This document shows, one piece after another, positions 38,677-45,405 of a stretch of DNA of 64,000 bases. How positions within the stretch are numbered: position 1 is the stretch's first letter; the number at the start of each line of letters is the position of its first letter. Under the pieces are notes generated by a model. It ran no database searches. It worked only from the letters and a program-made list of their open reading frames with translations, and had not been told where the DNA came from. Origin of the DNA: an uncultured Rhodospirillales bacterium (GTDB lineage Bacteria; Pseudomonadota; Alphaproteobacteria; Azospirillales; Azospirillaceae); NCBI GenBank assembly GCA_903927615.1, contig CAIYNU010000055.1:46051-110050 (forward strand), given 5' to 3'. Position numbers and translations under genes: made by a program.

Positions 38677-39492
38677 TCATTCCGGCGGTTCACGTCCACT
38701 CCCGGCCTCGGCGGCGGTCTTGGCGGCGTCGCGCCGATGCTCGATCCAACGGGCCGACCAGATTGATATCTCATAGAGCAGCATCAGCGGTATGGCCAGG
38801 CTGATCTGACTGAAAACGTCCGGCGGCGTCAAAATCGCCGCCGCAACAAACACCAGCACAATGGCATAGCGGCGCTTCTCCGCCAGTTGCTTCGACGTGA
38901 CCAAACCGACCCGGGCCAACAGCGTCAAAAGCACCGGCAACTGGAACGCGATGCCAAAGGCGAAGATCAGGGTCATCACCAGCGAAAGATATTCGCTGAC
39001 CCGAGCCTCCAATTGAATGGGCAACGTCGCCGGATCGCTGGGGTTCAGTTCGAAACCAAGGAAGAAACGCCAAGCCAAAGGGAAAACCAGATAATAAACG
39101 ACGGCGCCGCCCATAAAAAATAAGATCGGAGTCGCGATCAGGAACGGCAAAAACGCTTGCTTCTCATGTTTATAAAGGCCAGGCGCCACAAACAGCCAGA
39201 GTTGGGAGGCCACAAAGGGAAAGGTGATGAACGCCCCGGCCCAAAACGACACTTTGATGTAGGTAAAAAACGCCTCCGTCAGACCGGTGTAAATCATTCG
39301 CCGGTTTTGACCTGCAAGGATTTCTGCGAGCGGTCGCACCAGAAAAGCGTAGATTTCTTGGTGAAAAAGATAGCAGACGGCAAATCCGATCAACAACGCC
39401 ACCACCGAATAGATCAGGCGGTTCCGCAGTTCGATCAGATGCTCGACCAGTGGCATCCTGGATTGATCGAATTCCTCTTCCACCGTCGTCAC
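38677..39492 (-). CDS. tatC: Sec-independent protein translocase TatC
   Basis: 271 residues with the six-helix TatC layout. The conserved N-terminal RMPLVEHLIELRNRLIYS and YTGLTEAFFTYIKVSFWAG, then ILFFMGGAVVYYLVFP are characteristic. TatC recognises twin-arginine signals and forms the receptor with TatB. Start overlaps the tatB stop by 4 bases. Confidence 0.95.
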   Translation of the reverse strand: MTTVEEEFDQSRMPLVEHLIELRNRLIYSVVALLIGFAVCYLFHQEIYAFLVRPLAEILAGQNRRMIYTGLTEAFFTYIKVSFWAGAFITFPFVASQLWLFVAPGLYKHEKQAFLPFLIATPILFFMGGAVVYYLVFPLAWRFFLGFELNPSDPATLPIQLEARVSEYLSLVMTLIFAFGIAFQLPVLLTLLARVGLVTSKQLAEKRRYAIVLVFVAAAILTPPDVFSQISLAIPLMLLYEISIWSARWIEHRRDAAKTAAEAGSGREPPE

Positions 39493-39947
39493 CCCTGCCC
39501 ATGACCAGCCGCAGCACCGCTGGTCGGCGCCCCGACGGCAGGCGACGATGTTTCGATCAGCGCCGTCGCCTGAGCCAAGGCCGCCGGTTCTGCCGAGACC
39601 GAAAGCGGTGGCGGCGGCAACGGCTCCACCGGGCTGCCGGGATGGCCGGTCGCGCCAGCCTGGGTGGGATCGAGACCGTAACGGAGCGTCCCGCCGGGGT
39701 CCACCAGTTCGGCCAGGCTGCGGGGATGGGTCAGATCACGGGCGGCCTGGGCCTGACGGCGCAACTCGTCCAACTCGGTCTCGTGCATCATGTCGTTGAC
39801 ATGGCGTTGGAACTCGCCGGCCATGGCGCGCAGCCGACGCACGGCTTTGCCCAACTCATAAAGAACCCGTGGCAACTCTTTGGGTCCAATGGCAATCAGG
39901 GCAACCACCCCGATCACCAGGATTTCCGTCCAGCTAATATCGAACAT
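39489..39947 (-). CDS. tatB: Sec-independent protein translocase TatB
   Basis: 152 residues from ATG 39947; the frame is open further upstream to 40049 but MFDISWTEILVIGVVALIAI is the standard TatB start. One membrane helix, the hinge IGPKELP, an amphipathic helix and a Pro-rich tail. TatB pairs with TatC in substrate binding. No tatA is next to it: the upstream gene is an ExbB-type channel, so TatA must be encoded elsewhere, or TatB is doing double duty. Confidence 0.92.
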   Translation of the reverse strand: MFDISWTEILVIGVVALIAIGPKELPRVLYELGKAVRRLRAMAGEFQRHVNDMMHETELDELRRQAQAARDLTHPRSLAELVDPGGTLRYGLDPTQAGATGHPGSPVEPLPPPPLSVSAEPAALAQATALIETSSPAVGAPTSGAAAGHGQG

Positions 39948-40087: not shown

Positions 40088-40753
40088 TCATCCGCCCCGC
40101 TTCAGAATGGCCACCATATGCAGCGAGATTTTTTCCATCTCGATGATCAGGTTGGTCACGCGGTTGGTGAAGTTGTTGTAAAATACGATGGCCGGGATCG
40201 CGACCACCAAGCCACAAGCCGTGGTGATCAGGGCTTCGGAAATGCCGCCGGCAAGATCGCTGGCCTGGATGGTCCCGCCCTTGGACAGCGCATCGAACAC
40301 CTGAATCATGCCGATCACGGTGCCGAACAGACCCAATAACGGCGCCGCTGAGGCAATCGAGCGCAAGGTGGTCAACTGGGCGCGCAACCACGGGATTTCC
40401 TGCCGGCCGGCCTCTTCCAGACGCTCCTTGATCTCGTGCTCGCTCCGATCAAAATAAAGAATCCCCCCCAGAATCACCCGGGTCATGGGCAGCGAGGTTT
40501 TCTTGCAATAGGCGGTGGCTTCGGCGCGCTTATTGTCAAGCAGCAGACGCTCCACCTGGGCAATCACTTTGGCGTTGATCACCTGGCTGTGACGGAGTTG
40601 GCCGAGTTTCCAAATGATGATCCCGACGCACCAGACCAGGATGACCAGCAACAGCCACACCACCACGCCGCCCAGTTGAAACAGGTGAACGATGAAGGCG
40701 CCGAAGCGGCCGAACAGGTCGAGCAGCAGACCTTCGATCGCGGTAATGTCCAT
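40088..40753 (-). CDS. MotA/TolQ/ExbB family proton channel protein
   Basis: 221 residues. Three predicted helices: about 27-47 (GGVVVWLLLVILVWCVGIII), 131-152 (LRSIASAAPLLGLFGTVIGM) and 170-193 (SEALITTACGLVVAIPAIVF). APLLGLFGTVIGMI and the ALITTACGL segment match the ExbB/TolQ family, which form ion-conducting pentamers driving a partner in the periplasm. The adjacent upstream gene encodes the ExbD-like partner. It is followed by tatB; no tonB or pal is near. Confidence 0.88.
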   Translation of the reverse strand: MDITAIEGLLLDLFGRFGAFIVHLFQLGGVVVWLLLVILVWCVGIIIWKLGQLRHSQVINAKVIAQVERLLLDNKRAEATAYCKKTSLPMTRVILGGILYFDRSEHEIKERLEEAGRQEIPWLRAQLTTLRSIASAAPLLGLFGTVIGMIQVFDALSKGGTIQASDLAGGISEALITTACGLVVAIPAIVFYNNFTNRVTNLIIEMEKISLHMVAILKRGG

Positions 40754-40885
40754 TTCCCTTCCCCCGGGTTTCCACCGGGCGGTCTCTGCCGCCCGGTGAC
40801 GTCATATCATTGTCGTGACATCAAGGTCATTGTCGTGACATCAGGCGCCCTGGTCACACCGTCCGCGCCCTCGGGACCGCCGTCC

Positions 40886-42133
40886 TCAGTGGGCCAGCAG
40901 CACAATTTCGATCCGCCGGTTCCGCGCCCGGCCTTCGGGCGTGGTGTTGGCGGCGATGGGCTGAAATTCGCCGTACCCGACCGCGGCCAACCGGGTCGGC
41001 TCGACGCCGCCGGTTTGTTCGAAAAAGCGGACGACATTCACCGCCCGGGCGGCGCTCAAGGCCCAGTTGCTGCCAAAGCGGCTGGCCGGACCCAGCGGCA
41101 CGTTGTCGGTGTGGCCACCCACTTGAATCTGTAAGGTATTGACCCGGGTGGCCAGGATTTTGCCGACATTGGCCAGGACCGGCAATCCTTCGGGCCGCAG
41201 TTGATCACTGCCCGAGTCGAACAGGATGCGATCCGACAGTTCCAACACCAGCCGATCGTTGACCCGGGTCACCCCCAGCGACTTGTCGTCGATCAGCGAT
41301 TTAAGGCTGTCGGTCAGGTGCTGCTGGGTCTCCTCGATGCCGGCCAGCCGATCCAGTTCCGCCTTCTTCAGCGACTGGAACCGGGCATTTTCGGCGCTGA
41401 CATCGGCCACCTGAATCCGCAGCCGTTCCAACTCGGCCTGGGCCGCCGCCAGGTCGGCCTGGTGGCTGGCCTGTTCCCGCGCCAAGTCACTGGCCAGGGC
41501 CTTGCTTTCGGTCTCCAGGCGGGTCAACGTCGCCTGGGCCTCGGTGGCCTGCTGGGTCTGCTGTTCGGCCGTCGCCTGACTTTGCGCGAGCTTGGCCCGT
41601 ACGTCGTCAAGGGCTTGATCCATCACCACAATCCGCTGAGCCTGGCTCGCCAGGGCCTGCTCTTTGGTCGTCAGATCAGCCTGGAGCTGAGTCAGCCGTT
41701 GGGCTTGATCGGCCAGCCTGGCCTGATGGTCACTCAAGCTGGTGGTGGCCGTGGTCAGGTCCCCCTGAAGCCGGCCGATCTGGTCCCGTTGTCCCGCCAG
41801 GTCCGCTTCGTATCGGGTCGCTTGAACCGCACTGGCCTGAAGCTCGGCCTCGAGCCGGACCACCCGCTCACCCTGGGCCGCCGCCTGCCGGGCGCTTTCG
41901 GAGAGGTCCGTTTGCAGCCGGGCCAACACCGCCTCCTGGCTACTGGCGTGCTCCACCAGGGTCCGATTCTCGGTGGCCGCGGTCGCCAACTGGCCCTTGA
42001 GGTTGGCCAAATCCTCGGGACTGATCAACGAACTCGATACGGCGTAGAACAGCACAATCAGAAACAGCACGTCGATCAGCGGCGCCAGTTCCAGGGTCAC
42101 ATCGGGCTCGATCAACAGCTCGCTGAGCTTCAT
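40886..42133 (-). CDS. ExbD-like, long coiled-coil, OmpA-domain fusion protein
   Basis: 415 residues. N-terminus like ExbD/TolR/MotB: a cytoplasmic start, then LAPLIDVLFLIVLFYAVSSS with the conserved helix Asp expected to conduct protons. About 220 residues of Gln/Ala-rich coiled coil follow (roughly 45-265). The C-terminus is an OmpA-like domain (DRILFDSGSDQLRPEG, VGGHTDNVPLG, NRRIEIVL) that should bind peptidoglycan. MotB and ZorB have a similar plan, but the coiled coil is unusually long. With the next gene it looks like a stator unit anchored to the cell wall. Confidence 0.85.
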   Translation of the reverse strand: MKLSELLIEPDVTLELAPLIDVLFLIVLFYAVSSSLISPEDLANLKGQLATAATENRTLVEHASSQEAVLARLQTDLSESARQAAAQGERVVRLEAELQASAVQATRYEADLAGQRDQIGRLQGDLTTATTSLSDHQARLADQAQRLTQLQADLTTKEQALASQAQRIVVMDQALDDVRAKLAQSQATAEQQTQQATEAQATLTRLETESKALASDLAREQASHQADLAAAQAELERLRIQVADVSAENARFQSLKKAELDRLAGIEETQQHLTDSLKSLIDDKSLGVTRVNDRLVLELSDRILFDSGSDQLRPEGLPVLANVGKILATRVNTLQIQVGGHTDNVPLGPASRFGSNWALSAARAVNVVRFFEQTGGVEPTRLAAVGYGEFQPIAANTTPEGRARNRRIEIVLLAH

Positions 42134-42347
42134 GGCGACCTCCTCTCCCGGTTTGCCGCCGGCCGGCGACCGGCCAAAACGACTCGCAATTCACACGTCC
42201 CGACCTGGAAACGACCGGAACGGTGTTGTGACCACGACCCCTGGCGACGAGTCTCGCGTCGCACGATCGTGTCGATGGCACCGTACCGGTCAGGGCATGG
42301 CCCGACCCGACGGGGTTGAATGCCCCGCCGTCGTCGGAACCCTCCTC

Positions 42348-43388
42348 TTACGCCTTCAGATGCTCCAGCCGCTTCCACACGCCCTCGGCATCCCGGCGGC
42401 GCCCCACGTCGCGTTCCAACAGAAACCCCAAATTCTCCAATCCGGGGATAAAATTGGGTTCGCGCTCCAGCAACCGTTCGAAGGCGCCAATCGCCCGGGC
42501 CGGATCGCTGTCCTTCAGATCGAACCCTTCACAGGTGAACAACAACTCGGTCTTGCCGATCGCGACAACGTCACCGAACTCCAGAACGACATCTTCCGTA
42601 ACCGGGCTACCATTGCGGAGGGTGCCGTTGGTGCTGCCCGAATCCCTGAGGGTAAAGCGGTTATGCTCGTATCGCACCTCGGCATGAACCCGCGAGGCCT
42701 TGTTCTCGGCTAACATCACCCGATTGGTACTGGCGCGACCGATGGTGCATGCCTCGAAGGGCAGTTTGTATTCCTGTCCCGGCTCGGTCCCCAGCATCAC
42801 CCGCAGCACCGGCATCCCGTGGAATTGATCCTTGGGCTGAGCCGGAGGCAATCCACGGCCCAGCATCACCGTCGACTCCGCCGGCGCCTCTTCTTCCTCA
42901 ACCGCTTCCACCGGTGGGGGAGGAGGAGGGGCAGGCGCCCGAACTGGAGCCCGGACGGCGGTCCGGGGCGCGGACGCCCCCGGCATGACCGGCACCGTCT
43001 GGTCCGCTTCGTCGTTCCGGGTCGCAACCAACGGGGGGCGCTGCACCGGCTGAGGCGCCGGTTGCGGCGCGTGCTGGGGCGCGTGCTGGGGCGGCTGGGG
43101 CGCTTGCTGGGGCGGTCGCTGGGCCTGCTGAGGCGAAGAGGCGGTTGGTAAGGCCGACACGATGCGGGACAAGGCCGCCACATCGGCGCGCCACGCCGCA
43201 TACAACCGCTCACCCTCCCGATGGAGGTCGATCAGGGCGGCGGCGGCGCGCTCGGCATCGTGGGCCGCCGCACGCGCCTGCCGGGCTGCCGACAGGGCAG
43301 CCATTATCGCCAGTAGCGTTAACAAAGCGGCCACCGCCGCCACAACCCACGGAATCAAGGTCGCATTTGCACCGAACACTGCATCCAT
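42348..43388 (-). CDS. FHA-domain protein with N-terminal membrane helix and TPR-like tail
   Basis: 346 residues from ATG 43388; upstream reading is not family-like. Membrane helix near residues 8-30 (ANATLIPWVVAAVAALLTLL), a coiled segment, a long Pro/Gln/Ala linker (about 75-180), then an FHA domain (CTIGRASTNRVML, SRVHAEVRY, LRDSGSTNGTL), and a TPR-like C-terminus (DPARAIGAFERLLEREPNFI). FHA domains bind phosphothreonine peptides. It lies about 215 bases upstream of the ExbD-OmpA gene on the same strand, so it may be a regulator or scaffold of that complex. Confidence 0.82.
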   Translation of the reverse strand: MDAVFGANATLIPWVVAAVAALLTLLAIMAALSAARQARAAAHDAERAAAALIDLHREGERLYAAWRADVAALSRIVSALPTASSPQQAQRPPQQAPQPPQHAPQHAPQPAPQPVQRPPLVATRNDEADQTVPVMPGASAPRTAVRAPVRAPAPPPPPPVEAVEEEEAPAESTVMLGRGLPPAQPKDQFHGMPVLRVMLGTEPGQEYKLPFEACTIGRASTNRVMLAENKASRVHAEVRYEHNRFTLRDSGSTNGTLRNGSPVTEDVVLEFGDVVAIGKTELLFTCEGFDLKDSDPARAIGAFERLLEREPNFIPGLENLGFLLERDVGRRRDAEGVWKRLEHLKA

Positions 43389-43620
43389 CTTTATTTCCCC
43401 CGCCAGAATGTCCGCGTCTTCGGGACACCATGTTAGCAAAATCACCGATCCTGTCACGGCACAAACGCGAGTCCCGACGACATCGATCGGGTTATTGACG
43501 AAAGCCGACCGATACGACATCACCCGGCGTCACGTTCGCCGACACCGGTCCGGCCGATCCCGTCCCGGGCCACCGCGCTTTTCCGGTGTTCCTCAATACC
43601 GCCCCGCACGCATCAGCACC

Positions 43621-44175: not shown

Positions 44176-45405
44176 ATGATGGATAAGCGTCCGATGATCA
44201 CAGAAGAAATCAACCGCGAAACAAAGGACGCCGCGATCCTGATCGTTGACGACAACGGATCCAACGTCGACCTGTTGCGCGAAATTCTGCGTCACCAGGG
44301 CTATACCCAGGTTCGAGGCGAAACCGACCCGCGGCTGATTCCCGACCTGTGCCGGGCCACCCGGTACGACATCCTGTTGCTGGACATCCGCATGCCGCAT
44401 ATCAACGGCTTTCAGTTGATCGAGCTGCTGCGTCCGATTTTCGCCGATGATTATGTCCCGATCCTGGTCCTGACCGCTCAGACCGACCAGGAAACGCGCC
44501 GCAAATCCTTGGAGGTGGGCGCCAGCGACTTCCTGACCAAGCCCTTCGTCGCTTGGGAATTACTTCAGCGCGTCGGCAATATGTTACAAATTCGCATGCT
44601 CTACAAGAAAACCCGGGAACAGAATCGGGAGCTGGAGCAACGGGTGACCGAACGGACTCGGGAGCTGACCGAGGCCCTGGCCGCCACCCGCAAGGCCGAC
44701 CGCGCCAAGCTCGACTTTCTGTCGGTGGTGAGTCACGAGCTGCGCACGCCGTTGAACGCCATCATCGGCTTTTCCGAGATGATCTCGGCTCATGACGACA
44801 AGCCGCAGATTCCCGCCGATTATCTCGACTACGCCAGACTGATCGAGGAAAGCGGCAAACACCTGCTCGATATGGTCAACCGCATCCTCGACTACACCAA
44901 GGGCTCGACGGGCGCGGTCAATGTCGAGGACCGGCCGGTGGCGCTGCGTGATCTCGTGAGCCGCTGCATCAGCCTGCTGATGCCCAAGGCCGCTGCCAAG
45001 ACCGTATCGGTGATCCTGGAACCGTCACCCCCCCTGTGGGTTCGGGGTGACGAGCGCCGGCTGCGCGAAGTGGTCCTGTCGATCCTCGACAACGCCATCA
45101 AGTTCAATGCCGTAAACGGCAAGGTGACGATCAGCTTGAGCGACAGCCTGACCGGACCGGTGGTCACCATCGCCGACAATGGTCCGGGGATCGCCCCGGA
45201 CATTCGTGCGCGCATCTTCGATCCGTTTACCCAGGGCGAGGGGTCCCTGGACCGTCGCCACGACGGCATCGGCCTGGGCCTGCCCATCGTCCAACGGCAC
45301 ACCCAGCACCATGGCGGCCGGGTGGAGCTGGACAGCGAACCGGGCTGCGGAACCACCGTCCGCGTCTGTTTGCCCGCCGAACGGCGGCTTGACCGGGGCG
45401 GGTAA
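44176..45405 (+). CDS. Receiver-histidine kinase hybrid (REC-HisKA-HATPase), cytoplasmic
   Basis: 409 residues. N-terminal receiver (AILIVDDNGSNVD, acceptor in LLLDIRMPHINGF, DFLTKPF), a coiled linker, HisKA with acceptor in VVSHELRTPLNAIIGFSE, and an ATPase with LDNAIKF, DNGPGIAP and GIGLGLPIVQRH. No membrane helix or input domain, so signal enters by phosphorylation of its receiver or by a partner protein. No cognate regulator is adjacent; the next gene is an SDR 150 bases away. Confidence 0.9.
   Translation: MMDKRPMITEEINRETKDAAILIVDDNGSNVDLLREILRHQGYTQVRGETDPRLIPDLCRATRYDILLLDIRMPHINGFQLIELLRPIFADDYVPILVLTAQTDQETRRKSLEVGASDFLTKPFVAWELLQRVGNMLQIRMLYKKTREQNRELEQRVTERTRELTEALAATRKADRAKLDFLSVVSHELRTPLNAIIGFSEMISAHDDKPQIPADYLDYARLIEESGKHLLDMVNRILDYTKGSTGAVNVEDRPVALRDLVSRCISLLMPKAAAKTVSVILEPSPPLWVRGDERRLREVVLSILDNAIKFNAVNGKVTISLSDSLTGPVVTIADNGPGIAPDIRARIFDPFTQGEGSLDRRHDGIGLGLPIVQRHTQHHGGRVELDSEPGCGTTVRVCLPAERRLDRGG

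What the first reader, a model, noticed from the sequence alone, without database searches (positions are those of the whole stretch)
40088..43388. FHA + ExbD-coiled-coil-OmpA + ExbB set directly upstream of tatBC
Seen: three consecutive minus-strand genes encode an FHA/TPR-like membrane protein, an ExbD/MotB-like protein with ~220 residues of coiled coil and an OmpA domain, and an ExbB-type channel; tatB-tatC follow. Known: ExbB/ExbD-type pairs form ion-driven motors, OmpA domains bind peptidoglycan and FHA domains bind phosphothreonine. Inference: an ion-driven, cell-wall-anchored complex controlled by a phospho-dependent partner, distinct from TonB, Tol-Pal and flagellar stators (no tonB, tolA or pal here). 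ZorAB of Zorya shares the channel/OmpA plan but not the FHA partner.
Basis: partly seen in the sequence, partly recalled or inferred. Interest (0 to 1): 0.7.

Follow-up and report, generated by a model that had tools for sequence, protein, structure and literature searches.

The report
Phospho-switched, wall-anchored ion motor family
Three neighbouring bacterial genes, kept together in distant relatives, encode an ExbB-type channel, a partner predicted to form a long rod ending in a cell-wall-binding domain, and an FHA (phosphate-reading type) protein; they likely form an ion-driven, wall-anchored machine that would be switched by protein phosphorylation, a combination for which the literature searches made here found no description.

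Summary
In detail: FHA protein (42348-43388), ExbD/TM-coiled coil-OmpA protein (40886-42133) and ExbB protein (40088-40753), minus strand, then tatBC. The trio is a real module: the order FHA > ExbD-rod > ExbB recurs in all 8 genomes with a module-grade ExbB that I opened (Azospirillaceae and Gammaproteobacteria), and in 369 gammaproteobacterial genomes the FHA and ExbB families fall in the same 3. The ExbB proteins form one clade apart from E. coli TolQ, ExbB and MotA. Key channel and peptidoglycan-pocket residues are invariant. TatBC is an incidental neighbour. The FHA protein's nearest solved relatives are GarA and OdhI; an invariant threonine (T173) about 20 residues before the FHA domain, in a poorly conserved linker, suggests a self-docking phospho-switch like theirs and DgcB's (inferred). 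All 8 genomes carry Hanks-type kinases; in one, a kinase gene follows exbB. Best reading: a 5:2-type motor driven by proton motive force, held on the cell wall by a long coiled-coil rod (135 to 1,092 residues in those measured) and gated by threonine phosphorylation; cellular role unknown. It fails the tests for Tol-Pal, TonB, MotAB, Zorya, T6SS and PRK09039. New variant of a known kind.

The parts
42348..43388 (-). FHA membrane protein, 346 aa: TM plus long helix (11-79), disordered Pro/Ala-rich linker (80-190), FHA domain, TPR-like C-terminal helices
   Evidence: Pfam FHA 58 bits; AlphaFold model m5d587500afdd, pLDDT 76.5; family alignment A4 of 26 rows
42870..42872 (-). codon of Thr173, the invariant linker threonine proposed as the in-cis phospho-switch site (motif E-S-T-V-M)
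   Evidence: invariant in 23 of 23 distinct rows, while linker columns average 26% identity
42534..42809 (-). FHA domain (residues 194-285) with G217 R218 S232 R233 T253 N254 G255 invariant in A4
   Evidence: nearest solved relatives GarA and OdhI
42354..42530 (-). C-terminal helical, TPR-like domain (residues 287-345), as conserved as the FHA domain
   Evidence: 72% mean column identity; four helices
40886..42133 (-). ExbD/TM-coiled coil-OmpA protein, 415 aa (the 'B' subunit)
   Evidence: Pfam OmpA 69.2 bits, weak ExbD; AlphaFold model m0040e7d2250d, pLDDT 80.1
42035..42082 (-). transmembrane helix (residues 18-33) with invariant Asp21, the ExbD/TolR/MotB-type channel aspartate (role recalled)
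   Evidence: D21 in 68 of 68 rows of A7; hydropathy; model
41306..42019 (-). rod: one predicted continuous helix, residues 39-276
   Evidence: AlphaFold; periodicity peak 3.50-3.52 in 6 of 6 ExbD rods tested
40895..41278 (-). OmpA-type peptidoglycan-binding domain (residues 286-413)
   Evidence: Pfam; G340 H341 D343 N356 S360 R363 in 68 of 68 rows
40088..40753 (-). ExbB/TolQ-type channel protein, 221 aa (the 'A' subunit)
   Evidence: MotA_ExbB 119.9 bits; T145, T177, K109, R117, E119 in 121 of 121 rows, T178 in 120; own clade
43430..43457 (-). promoter-like site (GTGACA-16-TAACAT) in front of the FHA gene, conserved in L034 and L035
39489..39947 (-). tatB, downstream neighbour, judged incidental
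   Evidence: tatBC stands without the module beside it in G048 and G050
38677..39492 (-). tatC, downstream neighbour, judged incidental

Best explanation
The three genes are one conserved module encoding an ExbB-type channel, an ExbD-type partner whose predicted long rod ends in an OmpA peptidoglycan-binding domain, and an FHA protein with a predicted membrane helix, which together likely form a proton-motive-force-driven motor of the 5:2 kind that would be anchored to the cell wall and switched by threonine phosphorylation. Inferred steps: (1) five ExbB subunits surround two ExbD transmembrane helices, and ions passing Asp21 and the ExbB threonines turn the ExbB ring against the ExbD dimer. 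(2) The dimer runs through the periplasm as a two-stranded coiled coil and is held by its OmpA domains on peptidoglycan, so the ring in the membrane, not the rod, is the moving part, as in MotAB (recalled). (3) The FHA protein sits beside the ring by its own membrane helix and reads or transmits the motor's state in the cytoplasm through its FHA and TPR-like domains. (4) A Hanks-type kinase phosphorylates Thr173; the phosphothreonine docks into the same protein's FHA pocket, as in GarA, OdhI and DgcB, and so blocks or frees the contact with the motor or a third partner. Shown here: gene content, order, conservation, residues, domain models. Not shown: assembly, rotation, phosphorylation, cellular role.
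For: Gene order FHA > ExbD > ExbB in 8 of 8 opened genomes with a module-grade ExbB, from Azospirillaceae and Gammaproteobacteria. In the same 369 gammaproteobacterial genomes the ExbB family (3 hits, 298.1 bits or more) and the FHA family (3 hits, 259.6 bits or more, next best 82.9) fall in the same 3 genomes; two of the three supplied rows to the query alignments, so only G943 is an independent coincidence, and at most 8 (ExbB) or 6 (FHA) candidates per genome were scored. ExbB family one clade, support 96/92, against short ExbBD pairs, TolQ, E. coli ExbB and MotA. D21 and OmpA pocket residues invariant in 68 rows; ExbB T145/T177 in 121 of 121 rows. Rod predicted as one helix. FHA pocket residues and T173 invariant in 23 distinct rows; motif [DE]xT[VILM] 27 times in the linkers against a shuffle mean of 3.45 and maximum of 9 in 500. 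Nearest solved relatives by profile are GarA and OdhI, including the Rv1827 pThr22 structure; by fold GarA, OdhI and DgcB, the last also in complex with its own phosphorylated N-terminal peptide. Hanks kinase domains in 8 of 8 module genomes; in L039 a kinase gene starts 301 bases behind exbB. PMC6733907 (abstract) shows FHA control by the protein's own phosphorylated N-terminal region.
Against: No assembly was modelled: only single chains can be folded here. One of 8 modules (L086) has an ExbD rod without OmpA, so the wall anchor is not universal; its FHA domain also has Ser for T253. The ExbB glutamate E173 is E in only 87 of 121 rows. The window's ExbD hit is under the Pfam cut-off. Coiled-coil periodicity exceeds every shuffle in only 2 of 6 rods. 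T173 lies in a part of the model with pLDDT under 50 and its phosphorylation is unproven; the motif is only similar to ETTS of OdhI/GarA. Only 1 of 8 modules has an adjacent kinase gene; none of the 17 kinase places in the window's genome is on the window's contig. Rods of 811 and 1,092 residues in L038 and L036 would be longer than the periplasm is wide if straight, which a simple anchored-shaft picture does not explain.
Confidence: 0.55

Rival explanations
1. Envelope sensor rather than motor: the long rod and OmpA domain gauge the state of, or distance to, the peptidoglycan, a pull on the rod opens the ExbB/ExbD channel, and the FHA protein passes the signal to phospho-signalling in the cytoplasm; ion flow is the signal, not the power.
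For: Rod length varies widely, 135-286 residues in the 68 rows of A7 and 811 and 1,092 in L038 and L036, more natural for a tether than for a stiff shaft. The Zorya paper PMC11890865 (passages read) proposes that a peptidoglycan change triggers ZorB binding and channel opening. The cytoplasmic partner is a signalling domain with GarA/OdhI/DgcB-type relatives.
Against: The channel residues of the motor family are kept. L086 has no OmpA anchor. No downstream effector is encoded in the module.
Confidence: 0.25
2. A divergent Tol-Pal or TonB energiser: the set powers an outer-membrane protein as TolQRA/Pal or ExbBD/TonB do, with the OmpA domain in place of Pal.
For: ExbB is TolQ/ExbB-like by profile: TolQ 99.2 bits (cut-off 221), ExbB 69.6 bits (206.2); nearest solved chains are TolQ.
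Against: No tolA/tonB-like gene among the three; the genome has its own tolQ (268.8 bits, over the cut-off) beside ybgC; the module's ExbB is a separate clade.
Confidence: 0.08
3. A defence system of the Zorya kind, in which the FHA protein (and a kinase) replaces ZorC/D/E as effector.
For: Same plan of channel plus PG-binding partner; patchy, accessory distribution even within one genus. The kinase behind exbB in L039 matches PADLOC's PD-T4-6 defence kinase models (E = 1e-76), but it also matches many other kinase models and the PASTA-kinase model best in NCBIfam, so this may only reflect the kinase fold.
Against: ZorA models match the window's ExbB only at E = 0.027; ZorB models match only the OmpA end of the ExbD-like protein. 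Of three further family ExbB proteins one matches ZorA at 0.005, two not at all. No nuclease or helicase in the module; neighbours that I recognised by eye are housekeeping genes.
Confidence: 0.07
4. The FHA gene is only a passenger in an operon whose ExbB/ExbD pair is a plain PG-anchored channel, like the PRK09039 pair without FHA.
For: A pair of MotA_ExbB protein and TM-coiled coil-OmpA protein without an FHA gene exists in the same genus (L114, PRK09039).
Against: FHA kept in 8 of 8 modules and co-distributed in 369 genomes; its C-terminal domain is as conserved as the FHA domain.
Confidence: 0.05

Closest known systems
ExbB-ExbD and TolQ-TolR energisers (the GIT group of PMC12505986)
   Same: ExbB/TolQ-type A subunit, TM helix with the channel Asp
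   Different: B subunit carries a long rod (135-1,092 residues in those measured) and, in 7 of 8 opened modules, an OmpA domain; section 14 of PMC12505986 (read) says GIT B subunits have no discernible OmpA homology; extra FHA protein; separate clade
Flagellar stators MotAB/PomAB
   Same: OmpA-type peptidoglycan-binding B subunit
   Different: A subunit is ExbB/TolQ-type, 221 aa; long coiled coil; FHA partner; no flagellar genes recognised by eye beside the opened modules
Zorya ZorAB
   Same: channel plus PG-binding partner
   Different: in ZorAB the long tail is on ZorA in the cytoplasm (PMC11890865, abstract and passages); here the rod is on the B subunit, on the periplasmic side by topology; no ZorC/D/E; ZorA models match weakly or not
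PRK09039 'peptidoglycan-binding protein' with an upstream MotA_ExbB protein
   Same: TM, coiled coil, OmpA; channel-like neighbour
   Different: different TM motif (WPGWVDALSSL); window protein scores 114.4 bits against a cut-off of 388; MotA_ExbB partner only 24.5 bits; no FHA gene recognised in L114
Myxococcus Agl-Glt gliding machinery
   Same: TolQ/TolR-type motor (AglRQS) working with an FHA membrane protein (GltG) (PMC3169522, passages and table)
   Different: GltG has 640 aa and a TonB-like C-terminal part; AglQ/AglS are listed as ExbD/TolR without OmpA; the genes lie in separate clusters; the GltG model matches the window protein only over the FHA domain (28.9 bits, cut-off 650)
GarA/OdhI and DgcB FHA switches
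   Same: FHA domain preceded by a segment with a phosphorylatable Thr; nearest solved relatives; ETTS motif of OdhI/GarA (PMC8546545, passages)
   Different: GarA/OdhI regulate metabolic enzymes and DgcB its own GGDEF domain; here membrane-bound, TPR-like C-terminus, encoded with a motor

Membership tests
MotA/TolQ/ExbB channel family | PF01618 domain over the curated cut-off | tested here: met
   119.9 bits against 22.9
ExbD/TolR family | PF02472 over the curated cut-off | tested here: inconclusive
   18.9 bits against 25.4 in the window; 32.2 in L039
5:2 ion-driven rotary motors | channel Asp in the B-subunit TM helix and conserved A-subunit Thr residues | tested here: met
   D21 in 68 of 68 rows; T145 and T177 in 121 of 121 rows, T178 in 120; functional role of these positions recalled
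5:2 ion-driven rotary motors | pentamer around a dimer, ion flow, rotation | not testable with these tools
   single-chain folding only
Tol-Pal | tolQ equivalog with tolR, tolA, tolB, pal | tested here: not met
   TolQ model 99.2 bits against cut-off 221; no such genes in the module; the genome has another tolQ over the cut-off
TonB-ExbB-ExbD | ExbB equivalog and a tonB gene | tested here: not met
   ExbB model 69.6 bits against 206.2; no tonB in the module
Flagellar stator MotAB | MotA equivalog and MotB-type partner | tested here: not met
   MotA-type models 14.9-22.8 bits, cut-offs 237-380; tree
Zorya | ZorA and ZorB models plus ZorC/D or ZorE | tested here: not met
   ZorA E = 0.027, ZorB at the OmpA end only; three further ExbB proteins, ZorA 0.005 at best
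Type VI secretion (TagH, TssL) | TagH or TssL model over cut-off, T6SS neighbours | tested here: not met
   TagH 35.6 bits against 120.25; TssL 112.1 against 139.8; TssK marker in 4 of 8 module genomes
PRK09039 | NCBIfam PRK09039 model over cut-off | tested here: not met
   114.4 bits against 388; the other four PRK09039 models also under their cut-offs
GltG | NCBIfam gliding_GltG over cut-off | tested here: not met
   28.9 bits against 650
GarA/OdhI | OdhI equivalog over cut-off | tested here: not met
   44.7 bits against 200
GarA/OdhI-like self-docking FHA switch | Thr in a flexible segment phosphorylated and bound by the same FHA domain | not testable with these tools
   conserved T173 and FHA pocket found; phosphorylation needs the bench

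The most novel reading that the evidence does not exclude
A so far undescribed class of phosphothreonine-gated rotary machines: an ExbB-type ion motor locked to the cell wall through a coiled-coil rod up to about 160 nm long, longer than the periplasm is wide, so that the rod must lie along or wind around the wall, with a GarA-like FHA switch as its clutch. It would be a third design beside the flagellar (OmpA-anchored MotAB) and generic (short ExbD/TolR) motors and would tie the proton motive force directly to Ser/Thr-kinase signalling.
Probability: 0.3. Interest if true: 0.82.

Novelty: new variant of a known kind. Interest (0 to 1): 0.6.

Why it matters
Known ion-driven 5:2 motors are few, and they serve very different ends (motility, uptake, division, secretion, defence; recalled). 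A recent survey (PMC12505986, section 14) draws a line between flagellar stators with OmpA anchors and generic ExbB/TolQ motors without; this family sits across that line. If the FHA switch is real, Ser/Thr phosphorylation would directly control an ion-driven envelope motor. It is testable with three genes and point mutants.

Tried and rejected
Tat link: rejected; G048 and G050 (same genus) have tatBC with other genes upstream, and in other genera the module sits beside other genes. T6SS link: rejected (TssK in 4 of 8 module genomes; no T6SS genes recognised by eye beside the opened modules). Zorya: rejected by models. Plasmid spread: one weak ExbB hit in 72,556 plasmid records. Phage spread: only partial matches (35-41% of the query, at the OmpA end) in 5 of 50,697 records. 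A link between the RR-HisKA-HATPase gene at 44176-45405 and the similar gene behind exbB in L086: 26% identity, what common domains give; not pursued. Counting short ExbB hits as members: one search found matches in 70 of 398 genomes, 69 of them other than the window's own and scoring 173.7-199.7 bits; in the 29 of these 69 fetched as loci the partner is a 134-139-aa ExbD, too short for an OmpA domain, and no FHA-family gene was found in the 1.5 kb or less held on each side, so they were not counted. The FHA hits P0142-P0155 (135 bits or less) were left out of A4, as were P0121 (near-copy) and P0128. The second coiled coil-OmpA protein of L036 did not show coiled-coil periodicity (peak below the shuffle mean).

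Literature searches. Judged by titles and abstract beginnings, and by passages in the papers opened, none describes this three-gene set; the two lesser papers that hold FHA domain, ExbB and ExbD together name them in unrelated places (passages). The library holds open-licence PMC papers only, so absence there is weak evidence.

Full report
What is there. On the minus strand of the window, 43388 down to 40088, lie three genes: a 346-aa FHA protein, a 415-aa ExbD-like protein with a long helix and an OmpA domain, and a 221-aa ExbB/TolQ-type protein. tatB (39489-39947) and tatC (38677-39492) follow. Upstream, holC runs the other way. A promoter-like site at 43457-43430 is kept base for base in both hexamers in two sister species, while most of the sequence further upstream has drifted; the pattern alone is at chance level.

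Is it a module? The search for related loci returned 8 loci for the ExbB protein. Two of them (L040, L041) are ordinary ExbB genes with a short ExbD. The organisms named are Rhodospirillales and Azospirillaceae MAGs, one Methylococcales MAG and one Granulosicoccaceae MAG. Gaps between the three genes are 6-214 bases or overlapping, except in L036, where an extra gene lies between ExbD and exbB.

How common? In the window's order 5 of 82 genomes have an ExbD-rod protein at 150 bits or more; matches in the other genomes score 103.3 bits or less, and the 10 such loci checked hold no FHA-family gene and no ExbB above 22 bits. In 385 alphaproteobacterial genomes the FHA profile rings only in the window's own genome. 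In 369 gammaproteobacterial genomes the ExbB profile rings in 3 (E <= 1e-70) and the FHA profile at 259.6 bits or more in the same 3 (8 further genomes have FHA matches of 82.9 bits or less). Two of the three gave rows to the alignments, so G943 is the only fully independent coincidence; and only a few candidates per genome were scored. In G943's order 2 of 2 genomes have the ExbB, in G826's order 1 of 48. In protein databases the family is large: 6756 ExbB-profile hits at 1e-20 (which may include ordinary ExbB) and 1803 ExbD-profile hits at 1e-30, among about 8000 candidates scored each. Named sources among the listed hits are mostly Rhodospirillales/Azospirillaceae and Gammaproteobacteria (Methylococcales, Chromatiales); one ExbB (P0015) carries the name Rhodothermales. 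As a rough proxy read by eye from the lists, 9 of the 21 best FHA hits share a 'longest contig' length with a listed ExbB or ExbD hit. The set is accessory and patchy; even in the window's genus 3 of 5 genomes have it.

tatBC. In the same-genus genomes G048 and G050, which gave no module-level match, tatBC stands with other genes upstream; the modules of other genera lie elsewhere. The tat neighbourhood carries no functional message.

The channel subunit. In a tree of 33 rows (22 family members, of which 15 were chosen from the 120 listed database hits) the family is one clade, support 96/92, apart from seven short ExbBD-type ExbB, two TolQ, E. coli ExbB and E. coli MotA; the three E. coli rows and L041 sit on long branches, so their exact places are unsure. 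T145, T177, K109, R117, E119, P138 and N193 are the same in 121 of 121 rows, T178 in 120; E173 only in 87.

The rod subunit. In A7 (the window and 67 of 120 listed hits) Asp21 in the TM helix and the OmpA residues G340, H341, D343, N356, S360 and R363 are invariant in 68 of 68 rows. AlphaFold gives one helix from 39 to 276. In six ExbD rods tested, hydrophobic periodicity peaks at 3.50-3.52, above the highest of 300 shuffles in two of six (L036, L037) and above the shuffle mean in all six. The six rods measure 230, 230, 1,092, 318, 811 and 249 residues, that is 34 to 164 nm if straight (0.15 nm per residue and a periplasm of roughly 20-30 nm are recalled); in A7, whose rows are limited in length by the search, 135 to 286. 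L036 also has a second coiled coil-OmpA protein with a signal-peptide-like start (by eye) between the ExbD and exbB genes. L086 has a rod without OmpA.

The FHA subunit. AlphaFold: helix 11-79 (TM and beyond), disordered 80-190, FHA 194-285, four C-terminal helices. The C-terminal part is as conserved (72%) as the FHA domain (68%), the linker is not (26%), but Thr173 in the linker is invariant in 23 of 23 distinct rows (26 rows less three near-copies), and the G943 protein also has a Thr in an acidic stretch there. The motif [DE]xT[VILM] occurs 27 times in the linkers, in 17 of 23 rows, against a shuffle mean of 3.45 and maximum of 9; 11 of the copies are not T173. By profile the nearest solved chains are GarA and OdhI, among them the pThr22 form; by fold GarA, OdhI and DgcB. 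DgcB is controlled by its own phosphorylated N-terminal region (PMC6733907, abstract). OdhI/GarA carry a phosphorylatable ETTS motif (PMC8546545, passages); family motifs such as ETTLMF (L034) resemble it. The inference is an in-cis phospho-switch. Kinases: PF00069 rings over the cut-off in 8 of 8 module genomes, 17 places in the window's genome (whose 11 handles are 7 distinct genomes, four being listed twice; one search adds G943). In L039 a Hanks-type kinase gene starts 301 bases behind exbB; in the other seven no kinase place lies near the module.

What it is not. Tol-Pal, TonB, MotAB, T6SS TagH/TssL, PRK09039, GltG and OdhI models all score under their cut-offs; Zorya models match weakly or only at the OmpA end. 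T6SS marker TssK: 4 of 8 module genomes. The genome has its own tolQ (268.8 bits, cut-off 221) beside ybgC (159.1 bits, cut-off 141.35).

How it likely works, and what is inferred, is given under Best explanation. The published survey PMC12505986 (section 14 read) states that ExbB/TolQ-type motors lack OmpA-like B subunits; this family combines the two. The nearest published parallel that I found for an FHA protein working with a TolQR-type motor is GltG with AglRQS in Myxococcus (PMC3169522, passages read). In PMC12505986, PMC9389320 and PMC11890865 the term FHA does not occur in the main text.

Noticed in passing
L036:5932-7926: Second OmpA protein with a helical, coiled-coil-like stretch and a signal-peptide-like hydrophobic start, between the giant ExbD-rod gene (1277 aa) and exbB; possibly a secreted partner of the rod.
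   Followed up: partly
L114:2139-4796: In a same-genus genome a MotA_ExbB protein (24.5 bits) directly precedes a PRK09039 TM-coiled coil-OmpA protein: another uncharacterised channel/PG-anchor pair, without FHA.
   Followed up: partly
window 40807-40842: Two direct copies of GATGTCACGACAATGA (minus strand), four bases apart, in the gap between the ExbD-like gene and exbB; the only two copies in the window.
   Followed up: partly
window 39489-39947 and L106: In this genus tatB has no tatA directly upstream, whereas a more distant relative (L109) has a TatA-like ORF (by eye) in front of tatB; tatA has moved or lies elsewhere.
   Followed up: no
L086:8915-10129: A receiver-HisKA-HATPase gene overlaps the end of exbB by four bases in G943; a gene of the same domain make-up lies near the module in the window (44176-45405).
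   Followed up: partly
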